Positions 18,652 to 44,048 of a DNA stretch of 64,000 nucleotides are shown here, in pieces. The stretch comes from Siphlonurus alternatus (lineage: Eukaryota > Arthropoda > Insecta > Ephemeroptera > Siphlonuridae). Each line of letters opens with the position of its first letter. Within the stretch, counting starts at the first letter, position 1. The notes beneath the pieces are model-generated. The model saw only the letters and a list, made by a program, of their open reading frames with translations, was not told the DNA's origin and made no database searches. A program made the position numbers and the translations under genes. The stretch spans positions 37,366,979-37,430,978 of the forward strand of contig OX463780.1 of NCBI GenBank assembly GCA_949825025.1, given 5' to 3'.

Positions 18652-19178
18652 ATAGTCTTCAATTATTTAAAAAACAACAGACTTCTTTAAAAGTGAACAT
18701 AATATGAAAATATGAAATTTATAGCTCATGTTAAATAATTATATAGGCGCATTTAATTGCTCCTACCCCACCCCAAAACAACAAGAAAATAATAAAGTCA
18801 CAACATTTCCAAAATTAAAATTTGTTCATCATGCATAATTAAACTTATTTGACAACTCAATTAAGCAAATTATTTATACCATAATATTTTATTTGTTTCA
18901 ATCCAAATTATACCTTTCATGAAAATACCCGACATAAGTTTTATACATTTTAGTAATAGAAAGTAATTCAAAACGTGTAATAATACATTTTCTGTGAAGT
19001 TGAGACAAGTTAACAGCTCAATTCACTTCACTAACAGGGTAGCACATGCTTGCAATTGCGTTCTACACATTTGGAATGGGGTGATAGGCCTGCAGCTAAA
19101 CAGAGCGAGGGGGGGGGGCTCTCTGCAGTGTGGCGGAGAGCATAGGCACAAGAAGGTGTTGAGAAAATCGATGGTCTA
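18652..19178. other. AT-rich flank of the transposon
   Basis: AT-rich to about 19010, then a GC-richer patch with a run of ten G near 19111. The DNA immediately left of the transposon ends in the TA target at 19177-19178. No gene recognised. Confidence 0.45.
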
Positions 19179-19780
19179 CTGTCGTCGCCAAAAGTCGGGA
19201 CACCTGAACTTTGTTATTTTGCTGTGTACGAACAAAAACTCGTACAAGATGCAAAAAAATATTACAATAAACCTGCATTTCTTAGCTATTAAATAAAAAT
19301 AATTTCACGTTGTTTTATTTGAAAGTAAATTTGTTAAAATTAAATTAGTGAAGCAACCTACCCTAAAAAGTGACATTTTACAGAGACACTAGTCTTTGGA
19401 ATTTTGCAAAAAATACAGTTTTTAAATTATCACTTTCATTTTTTTTTCTCTAATAGCCTACTAGTTCAAGACACGATATAATTTTTAATTTTTCAAAAAT
19501 TACATGTTCTCTAATTTTAATTGCATTAAACACAAAATTAAACTCTAGTTTTTCAAATTTGGTGCTACAACCACGATAAATACATCATTATATTAAGAAA
19601 AAAAATCAAAAATTTTTGGTGGTTTTACTTTTTTTAAAAAATTAAACAATTAATTAATTAAAATTAAAATTGTTTGTGAGCTATTGCGACGTTGCCACTT
19701 CCGCCTCTCACCGCGCGCGAGAGTTTTAAACTTATCGGAAAAGCTGCGGAGGCGAGCTGGACGCACTTGCCGGCCTGATT
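19179..19780. repeat. Left terminal inverted repeat of the transposon
   Basis: 602 bp, reverse-complement match to 21870-22471. The outer end is CTGTCGTCGCC. The inner 100 bp are GC-rich (GCGACGTTGCC to GCCGGCCTGATT) and could hold promoter or transposase-binding sites. The two copies diverge immediately inward of CCTGATT. Confidence 0.92.
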
Positions 19781-20046
19781 TCTTTTGTAATTTCTTAAAC
19801 TATGTCCACCAATGGAACCAAGTCTTGCTTTTTAAATATATTTCTTTATGATCGTTTTGTATTGAGTTCTGAAAGCTCTGCACTGATTGGGAAATACGAA
19901 AAATCTTATCAGAGAAGTTGACAGAGAAACAAAGAGTTGATCTTTGGACCAATCACTCCTCAGGTCATTAGTCTCACATACCTGCTCCCTGCAAGCAAAG
20001 CAGGCAGTTTTGTGCTCGCCGACTCTCAGTACAGTACGTGTGAAAT

Positions 20047-21570
20047 ATGCCTTTCCCAAAGCGAAGTGTTTTGAAACAAATTAATAATATCAATAAAATG
20101 ACAAGAAAGAAAAGTGAAAATGTTGAAAACAATGTCGAGTGTGAACGAAGGAGCAAGTTACGAAGCTATGAAAAGGACATAATATTTAAGGCAAGAGATT
20201 TTTTTCAAAAAGTGAGAAATGGTGAAATTATAATTGATGTGGAAAAAGTGGTAGAGAACACTGTTCAGTGTACAGGTGTGAGCAAAAGCACAGTGTTGCG
20301 AGTGTGCAAAGAGTGCCATGAAGAAAATGAAAATGCGAATGTTTCATTTAGTTCCCCCCAAAAAAGCAGCGGTCGACCAAAAATTGTGCCCGACGATTTC
20401 ATGCAAGGCGTAATACGTCGCAAAGTACATGCTTATTATGTGAAAAAAGAATTTCCTGTCGTTGCAAATATATTAAGTGAGCTGAAAGCAGATTACCCTG
20501 ATTTTCCCAATATTAGTGAGAGAACGCTTTTGCGCTGGCTTCGACAAATGGGATTCCGATTTAAAAAATTTAATAAAAAACCAGTTTGCTTCGAAAATCC
20601 CCGCATCGCAGACCAGAGAATAAAGTTTCTGCGGGTTACTCGCCAGCTTCGAAGACGGGGATACAAGATATTCTACACAGATGAAACGTGGAGTGGCGCC
20701 AACCATACAATGACGTATGGCTGGCAAGAAGACGTTAGTCAACTGCCCAAGGATAGCGTGGACTTTCATCGTGGTGTGGTCCAAGAAGTCAATGGGTGGA
20801 AGGGTGGCATTATAACGCCCTCTGGGGCTGGCAAGCGAGTGATCATAGTGCACATCGGAAACGAAGATGGATTTTTAGAGCCTGAGGAGGACAGCATGCT
20901 CGTTTTCGAGGGTAAAAAAAACGAGCAAGATTACCACTCCGAGATGAATGCGCTGCACTTTGAGGAGTACTTCCGTCGAGTACTGCAAATTTTACCATAC
21001 AAGAGTGCTGTTGTGATCGACCAAGCACCATATCATACCATGCAAGACCCAGAGACCAAGAACCCCAACATGAATTGGAAAAAGGAAGAAATTATTGATT
21101 GGCTAATTAGAAATGAAATCGAGCCCCCCATTGACGATGATGGCTGGCAAGATTTGTACGAGTCCTTGACTAAAACAGAACTCATTGAAATGGGTCAACA
21201 CAAATTTAAGCCATTCAAGTACCTCCTGGAAAAGATTATTGAAGAAAGTGGCAGAAATGTGAAATTGATCTGGACCCCGGTAGCACACTGCGAGTTGAAC
21301 GCTATTGAACTCATTTGGGCCTGGGTTAAAAACTACATTGCTAAGCACAACAAAACGCACAAGGTCAAGGACGTCTTGGAGCTTAGCAAGGAGGCAATGC
21401 GGGTCATGCCTCCGGAAGTGTGGAAAAATGCAGTGGACCACGTGAAGAGGGTGGAGAACCATTACTGGACCAAGGAGGGCCTGATGGAGTCCTTCGTGGA
21501 ACCTCTGATCATCCATCTCGGTGACGACAGTAGTGACAGTAGTAGCGAGGAAGAAGAGGAACCTCAGTAA
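20047..21570 (+). CDS. DDE transposase, IS630-Tc1-mariner superfamily, DD95E type
   Basis: A 507-aa intact protein expected to bind the element's ends, excise it and insert it at TA. Residues 41-90 form a first helix-turn-helix (ending GVSKSTVLRV). GRPK at 109-112 matches the GRPR-type linker, and a second helix-turn-helix spans about 115-175 (SERTLLRWLRQMGF). The DDE domain has D212 in TDETW, D325 in VIDQAPYH and E421 in CELNAIELIW, followed by the usual WAWVK. There are 95 residues between D325 and E421, against 34-41 in common families. The extra segment (about 341-405) includes KKEEIIDWL and TKTELIEM, which look like paired helices. The N-terminus is basic (nuclear targeting likely) and the C-terminus (492-505) is a Ser/Glu-rich acidic tail. 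ATG at 20047 is the first in frame; Met18 is an alternative start. AATAAA at 21697-21702 is a plausible poly(A) signal. No intron is needed. Confidence 0.93.
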   Translation: MPFPKRSVLKQINNINKMTRKKSENVENNVECERRSKLRSYEKDIIFKARDFFQKVRNGEIIIDVEKVVENTVQCTGVSKSTVLRVCKECHEENENANVSFSSPQKSSGRPKIVPDDFMQGVIRRKVHAYYVKKEFPVVANILSELKADYPDFPNISERTLLRWLRQMGFRFKKFNKKPVCFENPRIADQRIKFLRVTRQLRRRGYKIFYTDETWSGANHTMTYGWQEDVSQLPKDSVDFHRGVVQEVNGWKGGIITPSGAGKRVIIVHIGNEDGFLEPEEDSMLVFEGKKNEQDYHSEMNALHFEEYFRRVLQILPYKSAVVIDQAPYHTMQDPETKNPNMNWKKEEIIDWLIRNEIEPPIDDDGWQDLYESLTKTELIEMGQHKFKPFKYLLEKIIEESGRNVKLIWTPVAHCELNAIELIWAWVKNYIAKHNKTHKVKDVLELSKEAMRVMPPEVWKNAVDHVKRVENHYWTKEGLMESFVEPLIIHLGDDSSDSSSEEEEEPQ

Positions 21571-21869
21571 GGTAGGTGTTTTTTTTATTAATATTTATTG
21601 AAATGTAAATTTTCTCACTCTCTCTCTCTCTCTCTTCCTATATTGCTCTTTTTGTTATAAAGCTATGTGTTTGAACTTTCTTTATAAAGTGCAAAAAATA
21701 AACGAGGAATATAAGTTAAACCATATTTTATTATGTACACTAACATTTGAATAGTTGAACTTTTTTTTTCATTACCCGCAAATTTTCATTTAAACTCTTT
21801 TAGTTCGTATAATTATATTTCAATTGTTTGTAGTTTTGTATTAAATTCGTATTATTTCCACTTGACTGC

Positions 21870-22471
21870 AATCAGGCCGGCAAGTGCGTCCAGCTCGCCT
21901 CCGCAGCTTTTCCGATAAGTTTAAAGCTCTCGCGCGCGGTGAGAGGCGGAAGTGGCAACGTCGCAATAGCTCACAAACAATTTTAATTTTAATTAATTAA
22001 TTGTTTATTTTTTTAAAAAAAGTAAAACCACCAAAAATTTTTGATTTTTTTTCTTAATATAATGATGTATTTATCGTGGTTGTAGCACCAAAATTGAAAA
22101 ACTAGAGTTTAATTTTGCGTTTAATGCAATTAAAATTAGAGAACATGTAATTTTTGAAAAATTAAAAATTATATCGTGTCTTGAACTAGTAGGCTATTAG
22201 AGAAAAAAAAATGAAAGTGATAATTTAAAAACTGTATTTTATGCAAAATTCCAAAGACTAGTGTCTCTGTAAAATGTCACTTTTTAGGGTAGGTTGCTTC
22301 ACTAATTTAATTTTAACAAATCTACTTTCAAATGAAACAACGTGAAATTATTTTTATTTAATAGCTAAGAAATGCAGGTTTATTGTAATATTTTTTTACA
22401 TCTTGTACGAGTTTTTGTTCGTACACAGCAAAATAACAAAGTTCAGGTGTCCCGACTTTTGGCGACGACAG
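21870..22471. repeat. Right terminal inverted repeat of the transposon
   Basis: 602 bp, the mirror of 19179-19780, ending GGCGACGACAG before the TA at 22472. The differences from the left copy are scattered single bases (for example in the A-run near 22394), so the pair has begun to diverge only slightly. Confidence 0.92.
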
Positions 22472-22473
22472 TA

Positions 22474-32905: not shown

Positions 32906-35634
32906 TCAGTATCTAATTATCCAAGAATTTAATTAATGTCAAAATAATTATATAAAATTACATTTTATCATAATTATAGAAGTGAAACAGAAACTACAAA
33001 TATTTCAAATTATAACATTGAGGCACCAGTATCAAATTTCACTCTTGTTAAAAAATCATACACACATTGATATATTATAAACTCTATATAATTACTGGAC
33101 AAATATGAAAATACATTTTTTAATACTGATACGACACAGAAATATTTTTTTACATCATTTAATATAACATGACAGCTATATAGTATAATGGAAGTATGCT
33201 CTGCTTGAATTATTATTAATAACCACCATCATGATATATTATCATCATGAATAATACAGAAATTTATTGATCATGGCATAATGTTATTATTATGATAAAT
33301 AAGTCGGAAATATTTGTAAAATGGTGTTTAAATACATAAACATTGAAAATGGTCTTTATTCAATTCGATCCAACTTAACCGTACTATGAAATTACTGAAG
33401 TACTTTAAATTTCTACAGGAAGTCTCAACTTCCTGAAGGGGTATTTAAACTGAATTAACTGTCACGTTACCTTGAGGTCAATGACCTGGAGAGTTCGTGA
33501 CAAAAGTCATTAACAAGATGTTTACTCTCTGTATGGATCTACTAAAATCCCTGCAAATATCATTGTCTTCTTTACCTTGTAAATGATTAATAATAATTCA
33601 GGTGAGAAAATAGTACCTGTATTATTAATTTAATGGAATATATTTTATTATGATTTTAAATCGTTAATATTTATCATGGTCCCAAAAAACTTCCATCTAA
33701 AAAAACAACAACATTACATGTTATCATAAAAAGAGCTTCTCTATGATATATGTATTTTGTATAGTGATATATTTAATATTGGTATTGACTTGTTTTAGCG
33801 TATAAAACATATATTGCTACTGTATAGTGACTTTATTAAAGTAAATGCATGGAAAGTAGTTTTCATGGAATTTGAGACAAAAAGCCAAGTGTATTACACG
33901 TGAAATATCATAATAATTAAGTTGGTATTATGCAAAACTGTATACCTAAGTAATTTACAATCAATTCATGTTGCAATGTTGTGATATACACTATATGTGA
34001 AACTGTAGAACTGCACAATATTCACATGATTTTGTATAATATACTGTGTAGTAAACTATACACAATTTATAATCCTATATATATATATATATATATACAT
34101 AATAAATACAATGTATATTAAACTAAATTTATCTTAAGATTATATGTATATTTATACATATAAAGATAGTTTAGAGTTTTAAAGCTAATTATCTTTAATT
34201 AAACAAATTAAACTCCATTTTAGTACAATAGTTAAGAGAATAAGTAGTATCTCTGTCTACTCTATATAGTTCTATATATATACATTTAGACACGGACAAA
34301 AACCATTACTCGTCTTGCTTGCCTTCTCAACTAGATGGACAAACGGTTTAGGTTCAACTTCGATCGCAACTACTACCACCTTTCAAAGACGACATGGTTG
34401 GTCTACTACTACATAGGGACTACTGCATGGTTGTAGAGGGTGTGTTCACATAGTCTGCTCACGTTTACGACGCTGCCAGTGCAGATTACCTTGTTATACC
34501 CAACCCAGTCAAGTCACTAGACATGGGAGAGATGGGCAGCAGGACTTATGGCTTGTCATGCTGTACTCATCCACTACTTCACAGCATTACATAAAAAGAA
34601 ACTTAAACAAAATTCTATATGTACTTTTGTTTATTAAATGTTGATAAATTAATCATCGTGTAATAAAATATTTTATGACACTTTTTTATTCATGTACACT
34701 GAAGTTGTTGAATAATAATCAGATTTAAACACCTGAGTTATCTGAGATTTTGTGATATAAAAAAGTGGACAGTTCGGATAATAAAGCATTTTTATGTATA
34801 AAACTAAATGTATTTTTAATGTTGTTGTTTTAACTCTAAAGTAGTTCTCAATGTCTTTTAATTTTTTCACTCTATTGATTTTCTGCCGTACAGGTTGCCT
34901 ATATTGTAAGGCGTTTTACACCTGCAAAATTAAAATATCGTTGGATTTTTTTTAACTTAAAAAACTTTGGACTACTCATTAAGTAATATTTGAACATGCC
35001 ATGCCACTATTCTTTCAATTTATATAAAACAATAACAATATTTACTGTGCCAATTAAGTTTTTTTCCCCAAAGTAGCAAGTAGCAAAAAAATATGGTTTT
35101 TACTTCATTTCTCCAACTGCATTTTCAATTAAGAAATGACCTTTTACTTCGTATCAGAGTAAAAAAAATTCTTATTTTTTTTTCTTTTCTACTTCTTCAT
35201 TTTGCTAACTGTCCTTATTTGCGACTTTGTGAAATGAATTTTTTCTTAATATTTTGCGTCAGGTTGTAAAATTAAAACACTTATTTTAATGTAATTAACA
35301 TAAAATTTCTTACTACAAAATTTAATTATATAATTTTGTATTTTTATTATGAAATAATTTTGTTAATAGGAAATGAAAATACCATAAATATAATTAAACC
35401 AATTGAAAATCATTGTAGCATATCACCTATATATAAAATTATTAAACCATGAACACATAACGTAAATTATTTTATATTAATAGAACATAAAGCAATATGT
35501 TTCCCATTTATACTTATCAGGTATATACTATTGTATATGAATAGCATTACGACGATACATTAATAATAATTTATGATTGGGAAGTTTCAAGTTTCTATAT
35601 ACCACTTGCTTTCTGGTCTAGCCTGCTTTGTTAT
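32906..35634. other. AT-rich stretch with a GC-richer island
   Basis: No gene recognised. (TA)n occurs at about 34076-34097. 34300-34575 is a non-repetitive, GC-richer patch without a supported frame. A T-rich tract just upstream of the second duplicate (about 32338-32378) could be a reversed poly-A tail. Confidence 0.45.
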
Positions 35635-36977
35635 AGTAACCCTTAGTTAAGCGGCACTTTTCGCGCGTAGGGATCCTCGTAAGAAACGCCCGCGAGATTT
35701 TCTTTTCGCGTGGCAGAGGTGTTCCCGTCCGGAATCGACCCGGGAGACGGGGGCGCGGGGTGGGGGGCCTCCCGAGGTTTCCGGAACCGCCTCCCTAAAA
35801 TCGAGTTTCCGTTCGGGAGGGGCGCCGGAGGGCGAGAGAGGGCGGAAATCTCGAGCCGGGGACGAGATTTCGGGGAAGTTGCGGGCCTCCGGGGGCCCTC
35901 CCCGGCGTCCGTCCTCGGCGCCGCGGGAGGGGCGGACCGGTCCTCTCGGAGGTTCATGAAGCCCTTTTTCCACTTTCGTCCCTCCTCCGACGGGGCGGGG
36001 GCGAGACCGCCCCCGACCCCGCGGGACGGTGCGGCGTCTGTCGGACCTCGCGGTTCTCGTGGCACGCGACCGGCGGCCCGCCGACGCGCCTCGAGACGAA
36101 GCGACCGATCCGTCGCGTCTCTCGCGCGTCTCGCCGCGAACGCGCGTCCCGTCGGGGGGTCGCTGGGGGCGGGGGAACCGCGGAAACTTTATCATCGGGG
36201 TCGCCCCCGACGTTTGCTAACTCGTCCGGGCACGAGAGTAGGTTAGGTCCGACGTCGGTCGATTGACACGGCCGATCGAGCGGACCACAAATGAGCAGAG
36301 AGCTTTTTTCGAAAGCGGGCCTGCTTTCCGTCAACGGGGACGTCAAAGTCGCGCCCACCTCTCTTTGAGCAACGTCGGGTGCCATTTCGCGATTTGAAAT
36401 CCTGCCTCCGTTCGAGGGGCGTGTTCGCGAGAATGACGTCGCGACACCTTTCCATCGCGATTTTAATAGTTTTCGTACTTACTCGATTGAAACGCTCCGT
36501 TTCCCGAGCTGACCGTGCGGTCGACGGGAAAAAAGTTAGGTAGTGGCATTCAGACGCGCCCACATACGGACGGATCTACATGACGTTGACAGCCATGACA
36601 GGGCGTAATGCCGCGTCGTCGCTAGGTCTACGTCTCACTCGCTTCATCCGAGAGGCGGAAGCGTGACTCTCGATAGAGACTTCCTGGGGGAGTCTCGTGC
36701 CGGTCCGACACAAGGGTGCACTATTTATCATACATTCTGGAAGGTTCCGGGGCGGTACGAGAAAAGGCCACCAGGTGGCAGCACGGCTCGGAGAATCACC
36801 AGATATAGTGGCGATCGCCGTCGAAATACTTCTACACTAAGTTCACAGATGGCGCGCAAATCCATTTTTATGACACGTGCAATTTTTGGTCATCACCACG
36901 TCGTCGCGACTCTCCTTCTCAAAAAGAAAATAAAAAAAAAAACAAAAAAAAAAAGGCCGGCGACCACCCGCACCCCT
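35635..36977 (+). repeat. Array unit 1 (1,343 bp)
   Basis: Left boundary abuts AT-rich DNA (TTTGTTAT). Carries CCACCAGGTGGCAG at 36768-36781, an exact match to the CTCF consensus CCASYAGRKGGCRS, and CAGATGGCGC at 36846-36855, a shorter CTCF-core-like site. An ACACGTGC E-box lies just downstream. GGTCGACGGG at 36519-36528 is loosely like a Sal-box terminator core. Private variants include GGTAGTGG near 36539. Confidence 0.9.
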
Positions 36978-38269
36978 AGTAACCCTTAGTTAAGCGGCAC
37001 TTTTCGCGCGTAGGGATCCTCGTAAGAAACGCCCGCGAGATTTTCTTTTCGCGTGGCAGAGGTGTTCCCGTCCGGAATCGACCCGGGAGACGGGGGCGCG
37101 GGGTGGGGGGCCTCCCGAGGTTTCCGGAACCGCCTCCCTAAAATCGAGTTTCCGTTCGGGAGGGGCGCCGGAGGGCGAGAGAGGGCGAAAATCTCGAGCC
37201 GGGGACGAGATTTCGGGGAAGTTGCGGGCCTCCGGGGGCCCTCCCCGGCGTCCGTCCTCGGCGCCGCGGGAGGGGCGGACCGGTCCTCTCGGAGGTTCAT
37301 GAAGCCCTTTTCCCACTTTCGTCCCTCCTCCGACGGGGCGGGGGCGAGACCGCCCTCGACCCCGCGGGACGGTGCGGCGTCTATCGGACCTCGCGGTTCT
37401 CGTGGCACGCGACCGGCGGCCCGTTGACGCGCCTCGAGACGAAGCGACTGATCCGTCGCGTCTCTCGCGCCTCTTGCCGCGAACGCGCGTCCCGTCGGGG
37501 GGTCGCTCGGGGCGGGGGAACCGCGGAAACTTTATCATCGGGGTCGCCCCCGACGTTTGCTAACTCATCCGGGCACGAGAGTAGGTTAGGTCCGACATCG
37601 GTCGATTGACACGGCCGATCGAGCGGACCACAAATGAACAGAGAGCTTTTTTCGAAAGCGGGCCTGCTTTCCGTCAACGGGGACGTCAAAGTCGGGCCCA
37701 CCTCTCTTTGAGCAACTTCGGGTGCCATTTCGCGATTTGAAATCCTGCCTCCGTTCAAGGGGCGTGTTCGCGAGAATGACGTCGCGACACCTTTCCATCG
37801 CGATTTTAATACTTTTCGTACTTACTCGATTGAAACGCTCCGGTTCCCGAGCTGACCGTGCGGTCGACGGGAAAAAAGTTAGGTCGTGGCATTCAGACGC
37901 GCCCACATACGGACGGATCTACACGACGTTGACAGCCATGACAGGGCGTAATGCCGCGTCGTCGCTAGGTCTACGTCTCACTCGCTTCATCCGAGAGGCG
38001 GAAGCGGGACTCTCGATAGAGACTTCCTGGGGGAGTCTCGTGCCGGTCCGACACAAGGGGTGCACTATTTATTATACATTCTGGCAGGTTCCGTGGCGTA
38101 CGAGAAAAGGCCGCCAGGTGGCAGCACGGCTCGGAAAATCACCAGATATAGTGGCGATCGCCGTTGAAATACTTCTACACTAAGTTCACAGATGGCGCGC
38201 AAATCCATCTATATGACACGTGCAATTTTTGGCCACCACCGCGTCGTCGCGACTCTCCTTCTCAAAAAG

Positions 38270-38301
<32 letters not shown>

Positions 38302-38321
38302 TGGCGACCACCCGTACCCAT
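36978..38321 (+). repeat. Array unit 2 (1,344 bp)
   Basis: CTCF-like sites at 38111-38124 (CCGCCAGGTGGCAG, one base off the consensus) and 38189-38198. Shares a block of variants with unit 3 (CCCGTTGACG, GCGACTGATCC, AACTCATCC, CAACTTCGGG), pointing to recent duplication of one from the other. It ends with the longest A tract of the array. Confidence 0.9.
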
Positions 38322-39652
38322 AGTAACCCTTAGATAAGCGGCACTTTTCGCGCGTAGGGATCCTCGTAAGAAACGCCCGCGACATTTTCTTTTCGCGTGG
38401 CAGAGGTGTTCCCGTCCGGAATCGACCCGGGAGACGGGGGCGCGGGCTGGGGGGCCTCCCGAGGTTTCCGGAACCGCCTCCCTAAAATCGAGTTTCCGTT
38501 CGGGAGGGGCGCCGGAGGGCGAGAGAGGGCGAAAATCTCGAGCCGGGGACGAGATTTCGGGGAAGTTGCGGGCCTCCGGGGGCCCTCCCCGGCGTCCGTC
38601 CTCGGCGCCGCGGGAGGGGCGGACCGGTCCTCTCGGAGGTTCATGAAGCCCTTTTCCCACTTTCGTCCCTCCTCCGACGGGGCGGGGGCGAGACCGCCCT
38701 CGACCCCGCGGGACGGTGCGGCGTCTATCGGACCTCGCGGTTCTCGTGGCACGCGACCGGCGGCCCGTTGACGCGCCTCGAGACGAAGCGACTGATCCGT
38801 CGCGTCTCTCGCGCCTCTTGCCGCGAACGCGCGTCCCGTCGGGGGGTCGCTCGGGGCGGGGGAACCGCGGAAACTTTATCATCGGGGTTGCCCCCGACGT
38901 TTGCTAACTCATCCGGGCACGAGAGTAGGTTAGGTCCGACATCGGTCGATTGACACGGCCGATCGAGCGGACCACAAATGAACAGAGAGCTTTTTTCGAA
39001 AGCGGGCCTGCTTTCCGTCAACGGGGACGTCAAAGTCGGGCCCACCTCTCTTTGAGCAACTTCGGGTGCCATTTCGCGATTTGAAATCCTGCCTCCGTTC
39101 GAGGGGCGTGTTCGCGAGAATGACGTCGCGACACCTTCCCATCGCGATTTTAATACTTTTCGTACTTACTCGATTGAAACGCTCCGTCTCCCGAGCCGAC
39201 CGTGCGGTCGACGGGAAAAAAGTAAGGTCGTGGCATTCAGACGCGCCCACATACGGACGGATCTACATGACGTTGACAGCCATGACAGGGCGTAATGCCG
39301 CGTCGTCGCTAGGTCTACGTCTCACTCGCTTTATCCGAGAGGCGGAAACGTGACTCTCGATAGAGACTTCCTGGGGGAGTCTCGTGCCGGTCCGACACAA
39401 GGGTGCACTATTTATTATACATTCTGGAAGGTTCCGGGGCGGTACGAGAAAAGGCCGCCAGGTGGCAGCACGGCTCGGAAAATCACCAGATATAGTGGCA
39501 ATCGCCGTCGAAATACTTCTACACTAAGTTCACAGATGGCGCGCAAATCCATTTATATGACACGTGCAATTTTTGGCCACCACCGCGTCGTCGCGACTCT
39601 CCTTCTCAAAAAGAAGAGAAAAAAAAAACGACCGGCGACCACCCGCACCCCT
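38322..39652 (+). repeat. Array unit 3 (1,331 bp)
   Basis: Closest to unit 2 by shared variants. CTCF-like sites at 39465-39478 (CCGCCAGGTGGCAG) and 39533-39542. The A tract is the shortest (AAAAAGAAGAGA and a short A run), which accounts for most of the length difference. Confidence 0.9.
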
Positions 39653-40992
39653 AGTAACCCTTAGTTAAGCGGCACTTTTCGCGCGTAGGGATCCTCGTAA
39701 GAAACGCCCGCGAGATTTTCTTTTCGCGTGGCAGAGGTGTTCCCGTCCGGAATCGACCCGGGAGACGGGGGCGCGGGCTGGGGGGCCTCCCGAGGTTTCC
39801 GGAACCGCCTCCCTAAAATCGAGTTTCCGTTCGGGAGGGGCGCCGGAGGGCGAGAGAGGGCGGAAATCTCGAGCCGGGGACGAGATTTCGGGGAAGTTGC
39901 GGGCCTCCGGGGGCCCTCCCCGGCGTCCGTCCTCGGCGCCGCGGGAGGGGCGGACCGGTCCTCTCGGAGGTTCATGAAGCCCTTTTTCCACTTTCGTCCC
40001 TCCTCCGACGGGGCGGGGGCGAGACCGCCCTCGACCCCGCGGGACGGTGCGGCGTCTATCGGACCTCGCGGTTCTCGTGGCACGCGACCGGCGGCCCGCC
40101 GACGCGCCTCGAGACGAAGCGACCGATCCGTCGCGTCTCTCGCGCGTCTCGCCGCGAACGCGCGTCCCGTCGGGGGGTCGCTCGGGGCGGGGGAACCGCG
40201 GAAACTTTATCATCGGGGTCGCCCCCGACGTTTGCTAACTCGTCCGGGCACGAGAGTAGGTTAGGTCCGACATCGGTCGATTGACACGGCCGATCGAGCG
40301 GACCACAAATGAGCAGAGAGCTTTTTTCGAAAGCGGGCCTGCTTTCCGTCAACGGGGACGTCAAAGTCGGGCCCACCTCTCTTTGAGCAACGTCGGGTGC
40401 CATTTCGCGATTTGAAATCCTGCCTCCGTTCGAGGGGCGTGTTCGCGAGAATGACGTCGCGACACCTTTCCATTGCGATTTTAATACTTTTCGTACTTAC
40501 TCGATTGAAACGCTCCGTTTCCCGAGCTGACCGTGCGGTCGACGGGAAAAAAGTTAGGTCGTGGCATTCAGACGCGCTCACATACGGACGGATCTACATG
40601 ACGTTGACAGCCATGACAGGGCGTAATGCCGCGTCGTCGCTAGGTCTACGTCTCACTCGCTTCATCCGAGAGGCGGAAGCGGGACTCTCGATAGAGACTT
40701 CCTGGGGGAGTCTCGTGCCGGTCCGACACAAGGGTGCACTATTTATCATACATTCTGGAAGGTTCCGGGGCGGTACGAGAAAAGGCCACCAGGTGGCAGC
40801 ACGGCTCGGAGAATCACCAGATATAGTGGCGATCGCCGTCGAAATACTTCTACACTAAGTTCACAGATGGCGCGCAAATCCATTTTTATGACACGTGCAA
40901 TTTTTGGTCGCCACCACGTCGTCGCGACTCTCCTTCTCAAAAAGAAAATAAAAAAAAAAACAAAAAAAAGGCCGGCGACCACCCGCACCCCT
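39653..40992 (+). repeat. Array unit 4 (1,340 bp)
   Basis: CTCF-like sites at 40786-40799 (exact consensus) and 40864-40873. Shares CCCGCCGACG, GCGACCGATCC and AACTCGTCC with units 1 and 5, but GTCTATCGG and CGCCCTCGACC with units 2 and 3. It is therefore a mosaic. Confidence 0.9.
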
Positions 40993-42337
40993 AGTAACCC
41001 TTAGTTAAGCGGCACTTTTCGCGCGTAGGGATCCTCGTAAGAAACGCCCGCGAGATTTTCTTTTCGCGTGGCAGAGGTCTTCCCGTCCGGAATCGACCCG
41101 GGAGACGGGGGCGCGGGGTGGGGGGCCTCCCGAGGTTTCCGGAACCGCCTCCCTAAAATCGAGTTTCCGTTCGGGAGGGGCGCCGGAGGGCGAGAGAGGG
41201 CGGAAATCTCGAGCCGGGGACGAGATTTCGGGGAAGTTGCGGGCCTCCGGGGGCCCTCCCCGGCGTCCGTCCTCGGCGCCGCGGGAGGGGCGGACCGGTC
41301 CTCTCGGAGGTTCATGAAGCCCTTTTTCCACTTTCGTCCCTCCTCCGACGGGGCGGGGGCGAGACCGCCCTCGACCCCGCGGGACGGTGCGGCGTCTGTC
41401 GGACCTCGCGGTTCTCGTGGCACGCGACCGGCGGCCCGCCGACGCGCCTCGAGACGAAGCGACCGATCCGTCGCGTCTCTCGCGCCTCTTGCCGCGAACG
41501 CGCGTCCCGTCGGGGGGTCGCTCGGGGCGGGGGAACCGCGGAAACTTTATCATCGGGGTCGCCCCCGACGTTTGCTAACTCGTCCGGGCACGAGAGTAGG
41601 TTAGGTCCGACATCGGTCGATTGACACGGCCGATCGAGCGGACCACAAATGAACAGAGAGCTTTTTTCGAAAGCGGGCCTGCTTTCCGTCAACGGGGACG
41701 TCAAAGTCGGGCCCACCTCTCTTTGAGCAACGTCGGGTGCCATTTCGCGATTTGAAATCCTGCCTCCGTTCGAGGGGCGTGTTCGCGAGAATGACGTCGC
41801 GACACCTTTCCATCGCGATTTGCAAACTTTTCGTACTTACTCGATTGAAACGCTCCGTTTCCCGAGCTGACCGTGCGGTCGACGGGAAAAAAGTTAGGTC
41901 GTGGCATTCAGACGCGCCCACATACGGACGGATCTACATGACGTTGACAGCCATGACAGGGCGTAATGCCGCGTCGTCGCTAGGTCTACGTCTCACTCGC
42001 TTCATCCGAGAGGCGGAAGCGTGACTCTCGATAGAGACTTCCTGGGGGAGTCTCGTGCCGGTCCGACACAAGGGGTGCACTATTTATCATACATTCTGGA
42101 AGTTTCCGGGGCGGTACGAGAAAAGGCCACCAGGTGGCAGCACGGCTCGGAGAATCACCAGATATAGTGGCGATCGCCGTCGAAATACTTCTACACTAAG
42201 TTCACAGATGGCGCGCAAATCCATTTTTATGACACGTGCAATTTTTGGTCACCACCACGTCGTCGCGACTCTCCTTCTCAAAAAGAAAATAAAAAAAAAA
42301 CAAAAAAAAAAAAAGGCCGGCGACCACCCGCACCCCT
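40993..42337 (+). repeat. Array unit 5 (1,345 bp)
   Basis: CTCF-like sites at 42127-42140 (exact consensus) and 42205-42214. Private variant GATTTGCAAAC near 41818 where the others have GATTTTAATA. It runs directly into the unique GC-rich segment after CACCCCTAGT. Confidence 0.9.
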
Positions 42338-42970
42338 AGTCCTTATTATTAAACATCACTTTCGGGACCCCAAAATTAACCAGCGTTTTCCTATGCTGGG
42401 ACGCACTTCCTTTGGGCGAGCGTCTGGGTTCGTCGGAACCCGACGAAACTTTTCCTGGGGGTTCCCGGGGGTGGCCGCCGTAACCGGGAAAATAATAAAA
42501 AATCCACGTCCGGGGGGGGACTGGGGGTGAATTTTTTTATCTAGATTTTTGGGGTTTTTCGGCCTCCGAGCTCTTCCGGTGCCCTGCGCTGGCCTTGGCC
42601 GGTGGAGGTCTTTGCCCGGTGAACTTTTGTTGCTGCCGAGTCGTGTTCGGTTCCGGACACCGGACACCCTTTCGGCAGCGCACGCCGCCCGTGAGGTTAC
42701 GTTTGGAAATTTGGGCTCTTCGGTGTCGTGTGGTCTGTGTTTCGAATCACCGTGTGTTCGAGTGTTGGTGCGTGGTGTGTTGTCGTGGCCGTGTAGTGAG
42801 GACGTCATGCTATTGCGACGTATTACGTGTCACTTTGATGTGTTACGGCCCTCTATCATGCACTTTGAATCACAAATGTGGACATCGTGGACACGGGGTG
42901 ACCTTGTGCCGCGTGACTCCACGGCTAGGGGATCTCCTCCCTGAGTTCATCTTTTCGTTGGTTTCGATTT
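42338..42970 (+). other. Unique GC-rich segment after the array, possible rDNA promoter/5' ETS-like DNA
   Basis: Single-copy continuation of the array. A GC-rich stretch ends in a T-rich/AT box (TTTTTTTATCTAGATTTTTG at about 42533-42552). About 400 bp of GC-, TG- and C-rich sequence follows, without a coding frame I trust. In ribosomal spacers the order is subrepeats, Pol I promoter, then 5' ETS and 18S, which this mimics. No 18S start follows, and AT-rich host DNA resumes by about 42970. The Pol I interpretation is inference. Confidence 0.4.
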
Positions 42971-43524
42971 GTGTTTTCTGATACGTAGACATGTAACGCA
43001 CAACGTTCTAGTGCTACTTTTTCCATTTTTTATACATACAGTGTTTCCTGCCATTGGAAAGTTTATGGTTACCAACTTCAACAGCTTCTTTGTCGTTTAA
43101 GTTTGAATGTTGGTGGAAAAAGGCAAGTATACCATTGGTAGAAAGAGTTCTGCTAACTGGGATTGGCTGAAGCTTTTGCATATCGTCAATGCTTTGAAAT
43201 TATTATACTTTATTAATTTTCTTTGTGTGACTGCTGCCATCCCATTGGCTGCTTCCGTTTAGAGGCAACATTGCAAAAGGGGATCTGACTGCTCAGTGCA
43301 GTGATGTGAAATTCGCGCGAAGATTGGTCCGCGAAAATGCGCATGCGAATATCCGCGCAAGTGCGCGCATATGTGCGTAAGATAGTTTCAAGATGGTGGC
43401 CGCCCGCAAATGGAATCACGTGAGCACAGATATTGTAGACATTCAGAAGTTCGATATTTTTCCCATAGGTGGAGATGCCATGGTAGCACATTCCAAGCAA
43501 ACTACTTCCAGGTGTGACTTAATT
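42971..43524. other. Intermediate-GC stretch with a YY1/PHO-like site
   Basis: 43213-43500 is GC-richer and non-repetitive, with clustered GCGC motifs (CGCGCAAGTGCGCGCATATG near 43353). AAGATGGTGGC at 43390-43400 is close to the YY1/Pho core AAGATGGCGGC, followed by AATCACGTGA (E-box). No coding frame recognised. It looks more like a promoter or enhancer than an exon. Confidence 0.35.
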
Positions 43525-43900
43525 ATTATAACTTTATATAAAATTGATTATTTTCGTAAATAATGCTCGGATTTACTCCCAATTAGGTCTAGGGGGGGTT
43601 ATAAAATTAAGGTGCAAGTAATGCGGGTTGCATACTTTCAGGGGCATGTAGGTTGTGGTTGCATACTTTCAGGGAAAGTTTGGTTGGGTTGCATACTTTC
43701 AAGGGCATGTAAGTGAAGGTTGCCTACCTTTAGGGGTAACTTATAATAACTTTATATAAAAACGAATATTTTCGTAAATAATGCTCGGATCATCTCCCAA
43801 TTAGGTCTAGGGGGGGTTATCAAATTAAGGTGTAATTAATGCGGGTTGCATACTTTCAGGGGCATGTAAGTTGTGGTTGCCTACTTTCAGGGGCAATTTG
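43525..43900. repeat. Tandem duplication, 218-bp period, with internal minisatellite
   Basis: TTTTCGTAAATAATGCTCGG and CCCAATTAGGTCTAGGGGGG occur twice, 218 bp apart. Within each copy GGTTGCATACTTTCAGGGGC recurs in degenerate form (43626, 43658, 43688, then 43843 and 43874). A nested duplication of an already repetitive segment; no coding role seen. Confidence 0.85.
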
Positions 43901-44048
43901 CGTTCGGTACATCATAGCATTACGAGGTTTAATTACAACTGGCCACCTCTTTGTGTTGAAGATGGGCAGTGTCCGGAGTAAGCCCATTGCCTTGCTCGCT
44001 CGAACACGACCGGACGCTAAGAAAATAATTAACTCGAATCTCCCCAAA

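What the first reader, a model, noticed from the sequence alone, without database searches (positions are those of the whole stretch)
19179..22471. Intact transposon with DD95E transposase and 602-bp inverted repeats
The catalytic residues are D212, D325 and E421, giving 95 residues between the last two. Known IS630-Tc1-mariner families mostly have 34-41; a longer DD82E group (Sailor) has been described. A DD95E spacing with 602-bp ends and clean TA duplication may define a separate lineage. The intact frame and near-identical ends suggest it is young and possibly active.
Basis: partly seen in the sequence, partly recalled or inferred. Interest (0 to 1): 0.75.

Follow-up and report, generated by a model that had tools for sequence, protein, structure and literature searches.

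The report
Intact DD95E Sailor-type DNA transposon
This is an intact, fairly young jumping gene of the already named Sailor group, from a sub-branch with an unusually long catalytic core, and the extra piece in that core may be a small DNA- or chromatin-binding module that the paper naming the group did not recognise.

Summary
Element 19179-22471 has 602-bp inverted ends (594 of 602 identical), TA on both sides and an uninterrupted 507-aa transposase with D212, D325, E421: DD95E. Comparison with Mos1 and Sleeping Beauty confirms an IS630-Tc1-mariner enzyme and the third acidic residue.

The lineage claim is half right. The Sailor paper (PMC8533490) gives DD78-111E, so DD95E lies inside it. My trees put the protein in a DD95E subclade of a long-spacer clade nested among DD79-86E relatives. 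It departs from the published majority in TA rather than TATA duplication, CT termini and long ends. Paralogous empty sites show TA duplication for two related insertions, not for the window copy, whose site is unique. The genome holds five uninterrupted frames of this kind and many young short copies sharing this element's outer 28 bp.

New here: in DD81-83E relatives the D-E insert matches HeH/Ish1 (LEM/SAP-like), twice above Pfam's cut-off. Against it: the window's own insert matches neither, and fold search of the insert alone found nothing. Activity was not tested.

The parts
19177..19178 (.). left TA of the target-site duplication
   Evidence: TA on both sides in 35 of 37 copies with this type of end
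19179..19780 (.). left terminal inverted repeat, 602 bp
   Evidence: 594 of 602 identical to the right arm
19179..19213 (+). outer end block, candidate transposase binding site
   Evidence: conserved in the alignment of five repeat types; first 28 bp identical to the short copies
19353..19374 (+). middle block (holds ACCTACC), candidate binding site; mirrored at 22276-22297
   Evidence: ACCTACC kept in all five repeat types aligned; binding untested
19596..19624 (+). inner A/T-rich block; mirrored at 22026-22054
   Evidence: conserved in four of five repeat types; binding untested
20047..21570 (+). transposase gene, 507 aa
20164..20325 (+). predicted first helical triad (residues 40-93), likely HTH
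   Evidence: AlphaFold2 helices 40-58, 65-76, 80-93; function inferred
20395..20547 (+). predicted second helical triad (residues 117-167), likely HTH
   Evidence: AlphaFold2 helices 117-132, 139-149, 158-167; function inferred
20680..20682 (+). catalytic D212
21019..21021 (+). catalytic D325
21037..21219 (+). insert of about 60 residues (331-391) relative to DD34E enzymes
   Evidence: profile alignment with Sleeping Beauty; L045 IS630-type frame without insert; exact borders are my choice
21082..21204 (+). helix-loop-helix of the insert (residues 346-386), proposed HeH/LEM/SAP-like
   Evidence: model helices 346-355 and 376-386; HeH/Ish1 matches in relatives; none for the window's own insert
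21307..21309 (+). catalytic E421
21870..22471 (.). right terminal inverted repeat, 602 bp
22472..22473 (.). right TA of the target-site duplication

Best explanation
An intact, apparently autonomous cut-and-paste DNA transposon of the Sailor group (DD78-111E) of IS630-Tc1-mariner elements, in a long-spacer sublineage. Its transposase binds the ends through two helical (HTH-like) triads, cuts the element out with a D212/D325/E421 RNase H-type core and inserts it at TA, which is duplicated. The insert of about 60 residues between D325 and E421 is probably a helix-extended-loop-helix (HeH/LEM/SAP-like) module that contacts end, target or chromatin DNA. A transposase of this type probably also moved, in trans, the many short copies that share its outer 28 bp. 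Shown: anatomy, family placement, TA flanks in 35 of 37 copies, TA duplication at two related insertions with empty sites, near-identical related copies. Inferred: the enzymatic steps, movement in trans, and the nature and role of the insert (my odds for HeH-like: about 0.5-0.6).
For: Ends, ORF, triad; fold and profile kin Mos1 and Sleeping Beauty; spacing inside the published Sailor range and HCELN.IEL motif; trees; TA in 35 of 37 copies with window-type ends, TATA on both sides in 0 of 37, TA/TA in 6 of 6 other coding copies; empty sites; five uninterrupted frames; L003-L005 99.5-99.75% identical at three places; 160 ends; short copies median 1.6% apart; HeH/Ish1 in inserts of relatives and not in control segments.
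Against: No paralogous empty site exists for the window copy in this genome. The insert folded alone found nothing, the window's insert has no HeH or Ish1 match, PDB profile searches gave no significant hit, and on whole proteins HeH and Ish1 are no commoner than some unrelated families. The ends of the window copy differ at 8 of 602 sites, more than those of L002, L004 and L005, so it is not the youngest copy.
Confidence: 0.85

Rival explanations
1. A separate superfamily beside Sailor, defined by DD95E, long ends and TA duplication.
For: Long-spacer clade with 100/98 support and consistent TA duplication, CT ends and long ends in the copies seen.
Against: DD78-111E is published for Sailor; the clade is nested among shorter-spacer relatives, next to a DD82E group at 89/92, when rooted on IS630 rows; the two classes share the insert.
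Confidence: 0.08
2. The insert is not a HeH-type domain but another small helical fold (for example SAM-like) or a lineage-specific helical expansion that only supports the core.
For: Fold search with the insert alone: nothing; best PDB profile match of the DD91-95E inserts is 2d8c, which I recall as a SAM domain, E 0.028; SAM_PNT matches 1 of 24 at 0.0038 and the window's own insert matches neither HeH nor Ish1.
Against: HeH above Pfam's cut-off in two relatives, at the place of the insert; HeH 6, Ish1 4, SAP 1 of 25 systematically sampled inserts, none in 25 control segments. The fold search used a single-sequence model of pLDDT 73.8.
Confidence: 0.4
3. The window copy no longer moves; the short copies were spread by another, perhaps lost, copy or relative.
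For: Its ends differ at 8 of 602 sites; the repeats of the short copies are only about 75% like its own beyond the ends.
Against: Open 507-aa frame; outer 28 bp identical to the short copies, against 22 of 28 for L002 and 19 of 28 for L004; the only other locus with close ends that I saw, C3:8138092, is 84% and degraded.
Confidence: 0.3

Closest known systems
Sailor (DD82E; range DD78-111E), Shi et al. 2021, PMC8533490 (parts 1-4 of 6 and passages seen)
   Same: Spacing in range; HCELN.IEL and DET motifs; insert between D and E; element and transposase lengths in the published ranges; low copy number of coding copies
   Different: TA instead of the predominant TATA duplication; ends start CT, not GT or CC; ends of 374-602 bp in the coding copies against 23-57 bp in most published species; VIDQA instead of VIIMDNA
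Tc1/mariner (Mos1, Sleeping Beauty)
   Different: DD34-41 spacing and no insert; this protein has 61 more residues than DD34E between the last two acids
IS630-type transposases (L045)
   Same: DET and DNA motifs and PD/CELNP.E ending of the core
   Different: No insert in L045; used only as a distant outgroup here

Membership tests
Sailor (DD82E) | D-E spacing DD78-111E | tested here: met
   DD95E; range
Sailor (DD82E) | HCELNPIEL around the third acid | tested here: met
   HCELNAIEL in the window, one residue different
Sailor (DD82E) | I/VVYLDET and VIIMDNA around the first two acids | tested here: inconclusive
   IFYTDET and AVVIDQA: partial agreement
Sailor (DD82E) | Phylogenetic position within Sailor | tested here: met
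   Nested among relatives with published motifs; the published sequences themselves were not available
Sailor (DD82E) | TATA duplication (reported for the majority, so not strictly defining) | tested here: not met
   TA; TATA on both sides in 0 of 37 copies
Sailor (DD82E) | Ends start GT or CC (reported as usual, not strictly defining) | tested here: not met
   CTGTCG
Tc1/mariner | D-E/D spacing 34-41 | tested here: not met
   95
Tc1/mariner | TA duplication | tested here: met
HeH/LEM/SAP-like domain (insert) | Match above Pfam's curated cut-off | tested here: inconclusive
   Met in P0096 and P0099; no match for the window's own insert
HeH/LEM/SAP-like domain (insert) | Fold match to a solved member | tested here: inconclusive
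   Single-sequence model, pLDDT 73.8, no match

The most novel reading that the evidence does not exclude
Sailor transposases carry a HeH/SAP/LEM-like DNA- or chromatin-binding domain inserted inside the RNase H catalytic core, an architecture I found described in none of the papers searched; in the long-spacer sublineage its loop has lengthened and the element uses TA, so the insert may help set the target.
Probability: 0.45. Interest if true: 0.65.

Novelty: new variant of a known kind. Interest (0 to 1): 0.45.

Why it matters
Sailor was published with an unexplained insert in its catalytic domain. If the insert is a HeH-type module, the long spacers come from an acquired domain whose removal or swap can be tested. 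The same genome holds a TA-using DD95E group and at least one TATA-flanked DD81E-type copy, which makes it possible to ask what sets the duplication. Five uninterrupted transposase frames and a young non-autonomous partner family offer material for a transposition assay of this group.

Tried and rejected
Rejected: a new superfamily (spacing inside the published range, nested tree). Rejected: TATA duplication (0 of 37). Rejected: a misplaced third acidic residue. Without result: viral-contig scan, no relative; genome-contig scan, 6 loci, of which L044 (3.3-kb contig named for a Bathymodiolus symbiont, perhaps host contamination) is Sailor-like, L045, L048 and L049 are IS630-like and the others unclear. 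Host mariner copies showed none of the motifs I looked for in six loci, so they could not serve as outgroup. Single-sequence PDB comparison gave nothing significant. No second copy of the outer 30 bp inside the element at 10 or fewer mismatches. No tandem array found at 34-45 kb by TRF, whose longest period is 500. Paper searches: DD83E-DD96E spacings found only the Sailor paper (six spacings asked); HeH, LEM, SAP or insertion domain with transposase found none. No paralogous empty site for the window copy: only its own two halves match. The host species was not identified.

Full report
Observation. The element lies at 19179-22471 with TA on both sides. Its arms are 602 bp and differ at 8 sites. 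One ORF, 20047-21570, encodes 507 aa. D212, D325 and E421 give DD95E and are conserved at 90% or more in an alignment of the window and 75 of the 109 relatives.

Relatives. A search of 5.8 billion proteins gave 109 relatives; the named ones come from mayfly, damselfly, parasitic wasps, firefly, springtail, moths and a butterfly, beetles and a clam, while most are unnamed metagenome proteins. Of 110 proteins including the window, 67 could be measured by my motif search: DD91E 21, DD82E 15, DD92E 10, DD95E 9, others 12 (one of these, P0097, ambiguous); 43 could not. A search with a DD82E-type profile gave 952 relatives with 120 listed, and only the 7990 candidates sharing most words were scored. 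An alignment of 100 of the newly listed ones has the consensus YYLDET, VIVMDNA, HCELNPIEL, close to the published Sailor motifs.

Tree. In a 90-row tree, 42 rows with spacers of 88 or more lie on one side of a branch with 100/98 support; 39 rows are shorter and 9 unmeasured. The window is in an 11-row clade (100/100) of ten DD95E rows and one unmeasured row; it holds four rows of this genome and two Ephemera danica proteins. A second tree used 44 of these rows chosen by hand and two partial IS630 rows as outgroup (42% and 33% of columns filled): the long clade is nested, beside a DD82E group at 89/92.

Print. Of PMC8533490 I read parts 1-4 of 6 and two sets of passages, not its supplement. It gives DD78E-DD111E, spacers over 90 in arthropods among others, TATA duplications in the majority, ends usually starting GT or CC, ends of 23-57 bp in most species and up to 1362 bp, and inserts without a recognised domain. 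The window element fits the spacing and length ranges and departs in duplication, end letters and end length. A TA-using arthropod Sailor may be in its supplement.

Duplication and empty sites. Of 37 distinct copies with window-type ends in fetched loci, 35 have TA on both sides, 0 have TATA on both, and 2 (L054, L056) lack the right TA. The six other coding copies L002-L007 are TA/TA. For short copy L062, which sits in a repeat, the joined flanks gave 27 matches, two of them its own halves; of the other 25 I fetched 8, and 7 have a single TA at the junction and one TG. L006 lies in a tandem repeat of mostly 53-54 bp, and taking out the element with one TA restores the period. The joined flanks of the window copy match only its own two halves, so its own empty site was not seen. 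In the same genome three DD81E-type copies have short inverted repeats around the frame: L072 with TATA on both sides, L071 with TAAA and TATA, L070 with TA. TATA is therefore not universal in the shorter-spacer group either.

Copies and age. The genome (455.7 Mb, 102 contigs) gave 13 protein matches: five uninterrupted full-length frames (window, L002-L005), one with a stop (L006), two halves of one split copy (L007, L008), two fragments (L009, L010) and three distant DD81E-type copies (L011-L013). L003, L004 and L005 are 99.5-99.75% identical at three places, L006 and L007 98.9%. The end pattern has 160 hits, of which 100 are listed; by my reading these hold 41 facing pairs, 37 of them about 1.62-1.68 kb apart. 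Among fetched loci, 32 short copies differ by a median of 1.6% and at most 2.3%; four more carry other inserted sequence. The repeats of the copies printed are about 74-76% like the window's, and the centre of the five short copies printed matches nothing in the window element. Yet the outer 28 bp of one short copy, taken as representative, equal the window's at both ends, against 22 of 28 for L002 and 19 of 28 for L004. I infer movement in trans by a window-type transposase.

End blocks. An alignment of five repeat types keeps parts of the first 35 bp, a block with ACCTACC about 180 bp in, and in four of five an A/T-rich block about 420-445 bp in. These are candidate binding sites, untested.

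The insert. I scanned 16 relatives singly, some chosen because a HeH domain was already listed for them; 6 show HeH or Ish1. HeH is above Pfam's cut-off in P0096 (30.3 against 28.9 bits) and P0099 (30.1). Below cut-off are HeH in P0094 and P0101 and Ish1 in P0048, P0069, P0096, P0099 and P0101, all between the second D and E; one weak Ish1 hit in P0094 is elsewhere. Of 27 inserts of the DD81-83E type, chosen by hand from the 76 rows, 12 match Ish1 and 9 HeH at E up to 1, and the next families 2 each. Of 24 DD91-95E inserts, also hand-chosen, 4 match Ish1, none HeH, and the window's own neither. In a systematic sample, every fourth of 100, 6 of 25 inserts match HeH, 4 Ish1 and 1 SAP, while 25 control segments of the same proteins match none of these. 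On whole proteins the signal is weak: HeH 4 and Ish1 9 of 76, 5 and 5 of 100 with some unrelated families as frequent. The two insert classes match each other at 99.4% probability, which only shows that they correspond. The full model has helices 346-355, 376-386 and 393-401 at high confidence. Against: the insert folded alone (one sequence, pLDDT 73.8) found nothing of note in the PDB; PDB profile searches had no significant hit, the best for DD81-83E inserts being beta-lactamases at 0.037-0.055 and a Mu-like phage protein at 0.064, for DD91-95E inserts 2d8c at 0.028, which I recall as a SAM domain. That HeH, LEM, SAP and Ish1 are related folds is recalled. I put the domain claim a little above even.

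Verdict. A well-preserved variant of Sailor. The insert is the part worth following.

Noticed in passing
window 35600-42800: GC-rich island (60% at 36001-40000, 54% at 40001-44000) in an otherwise 26-34% GC window, with similar ORFs recurring about every 1.3-1.4 kb (minus-strand ORFs starting at 35647, 36990, 38262, 39665, 41005). Looks like a repeated, perhaps ribosomal-spacer-like block, but no Rfam match in the window.
   Followed up: no
proteins of alignment A1: 4 of 76 Sailor-type transposases also match the OTU cysteine protease family (best E 0.00057), which suggests fused proteins; which members was not shown.
   Followed up: no
L072, L071, L070 (same genome): DD81E-type copies with short inverted repeats: TATA on both sides in L072, TAAA/TATA in L071, TA in L070.
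   Followed up: partly
L044: DD83E Sailor-type ORF of 425 aa on a 3.3-kb contig named as a Bathymodiolus gill symbiont; host contamination is possible, which bears on claims of bacterial Sailors.
   Followed up: no
L050: A short copy interrupted by sequence with a 332-aa frame that reads like a reverse transcriptase (motif by eye).
   Followed up: no
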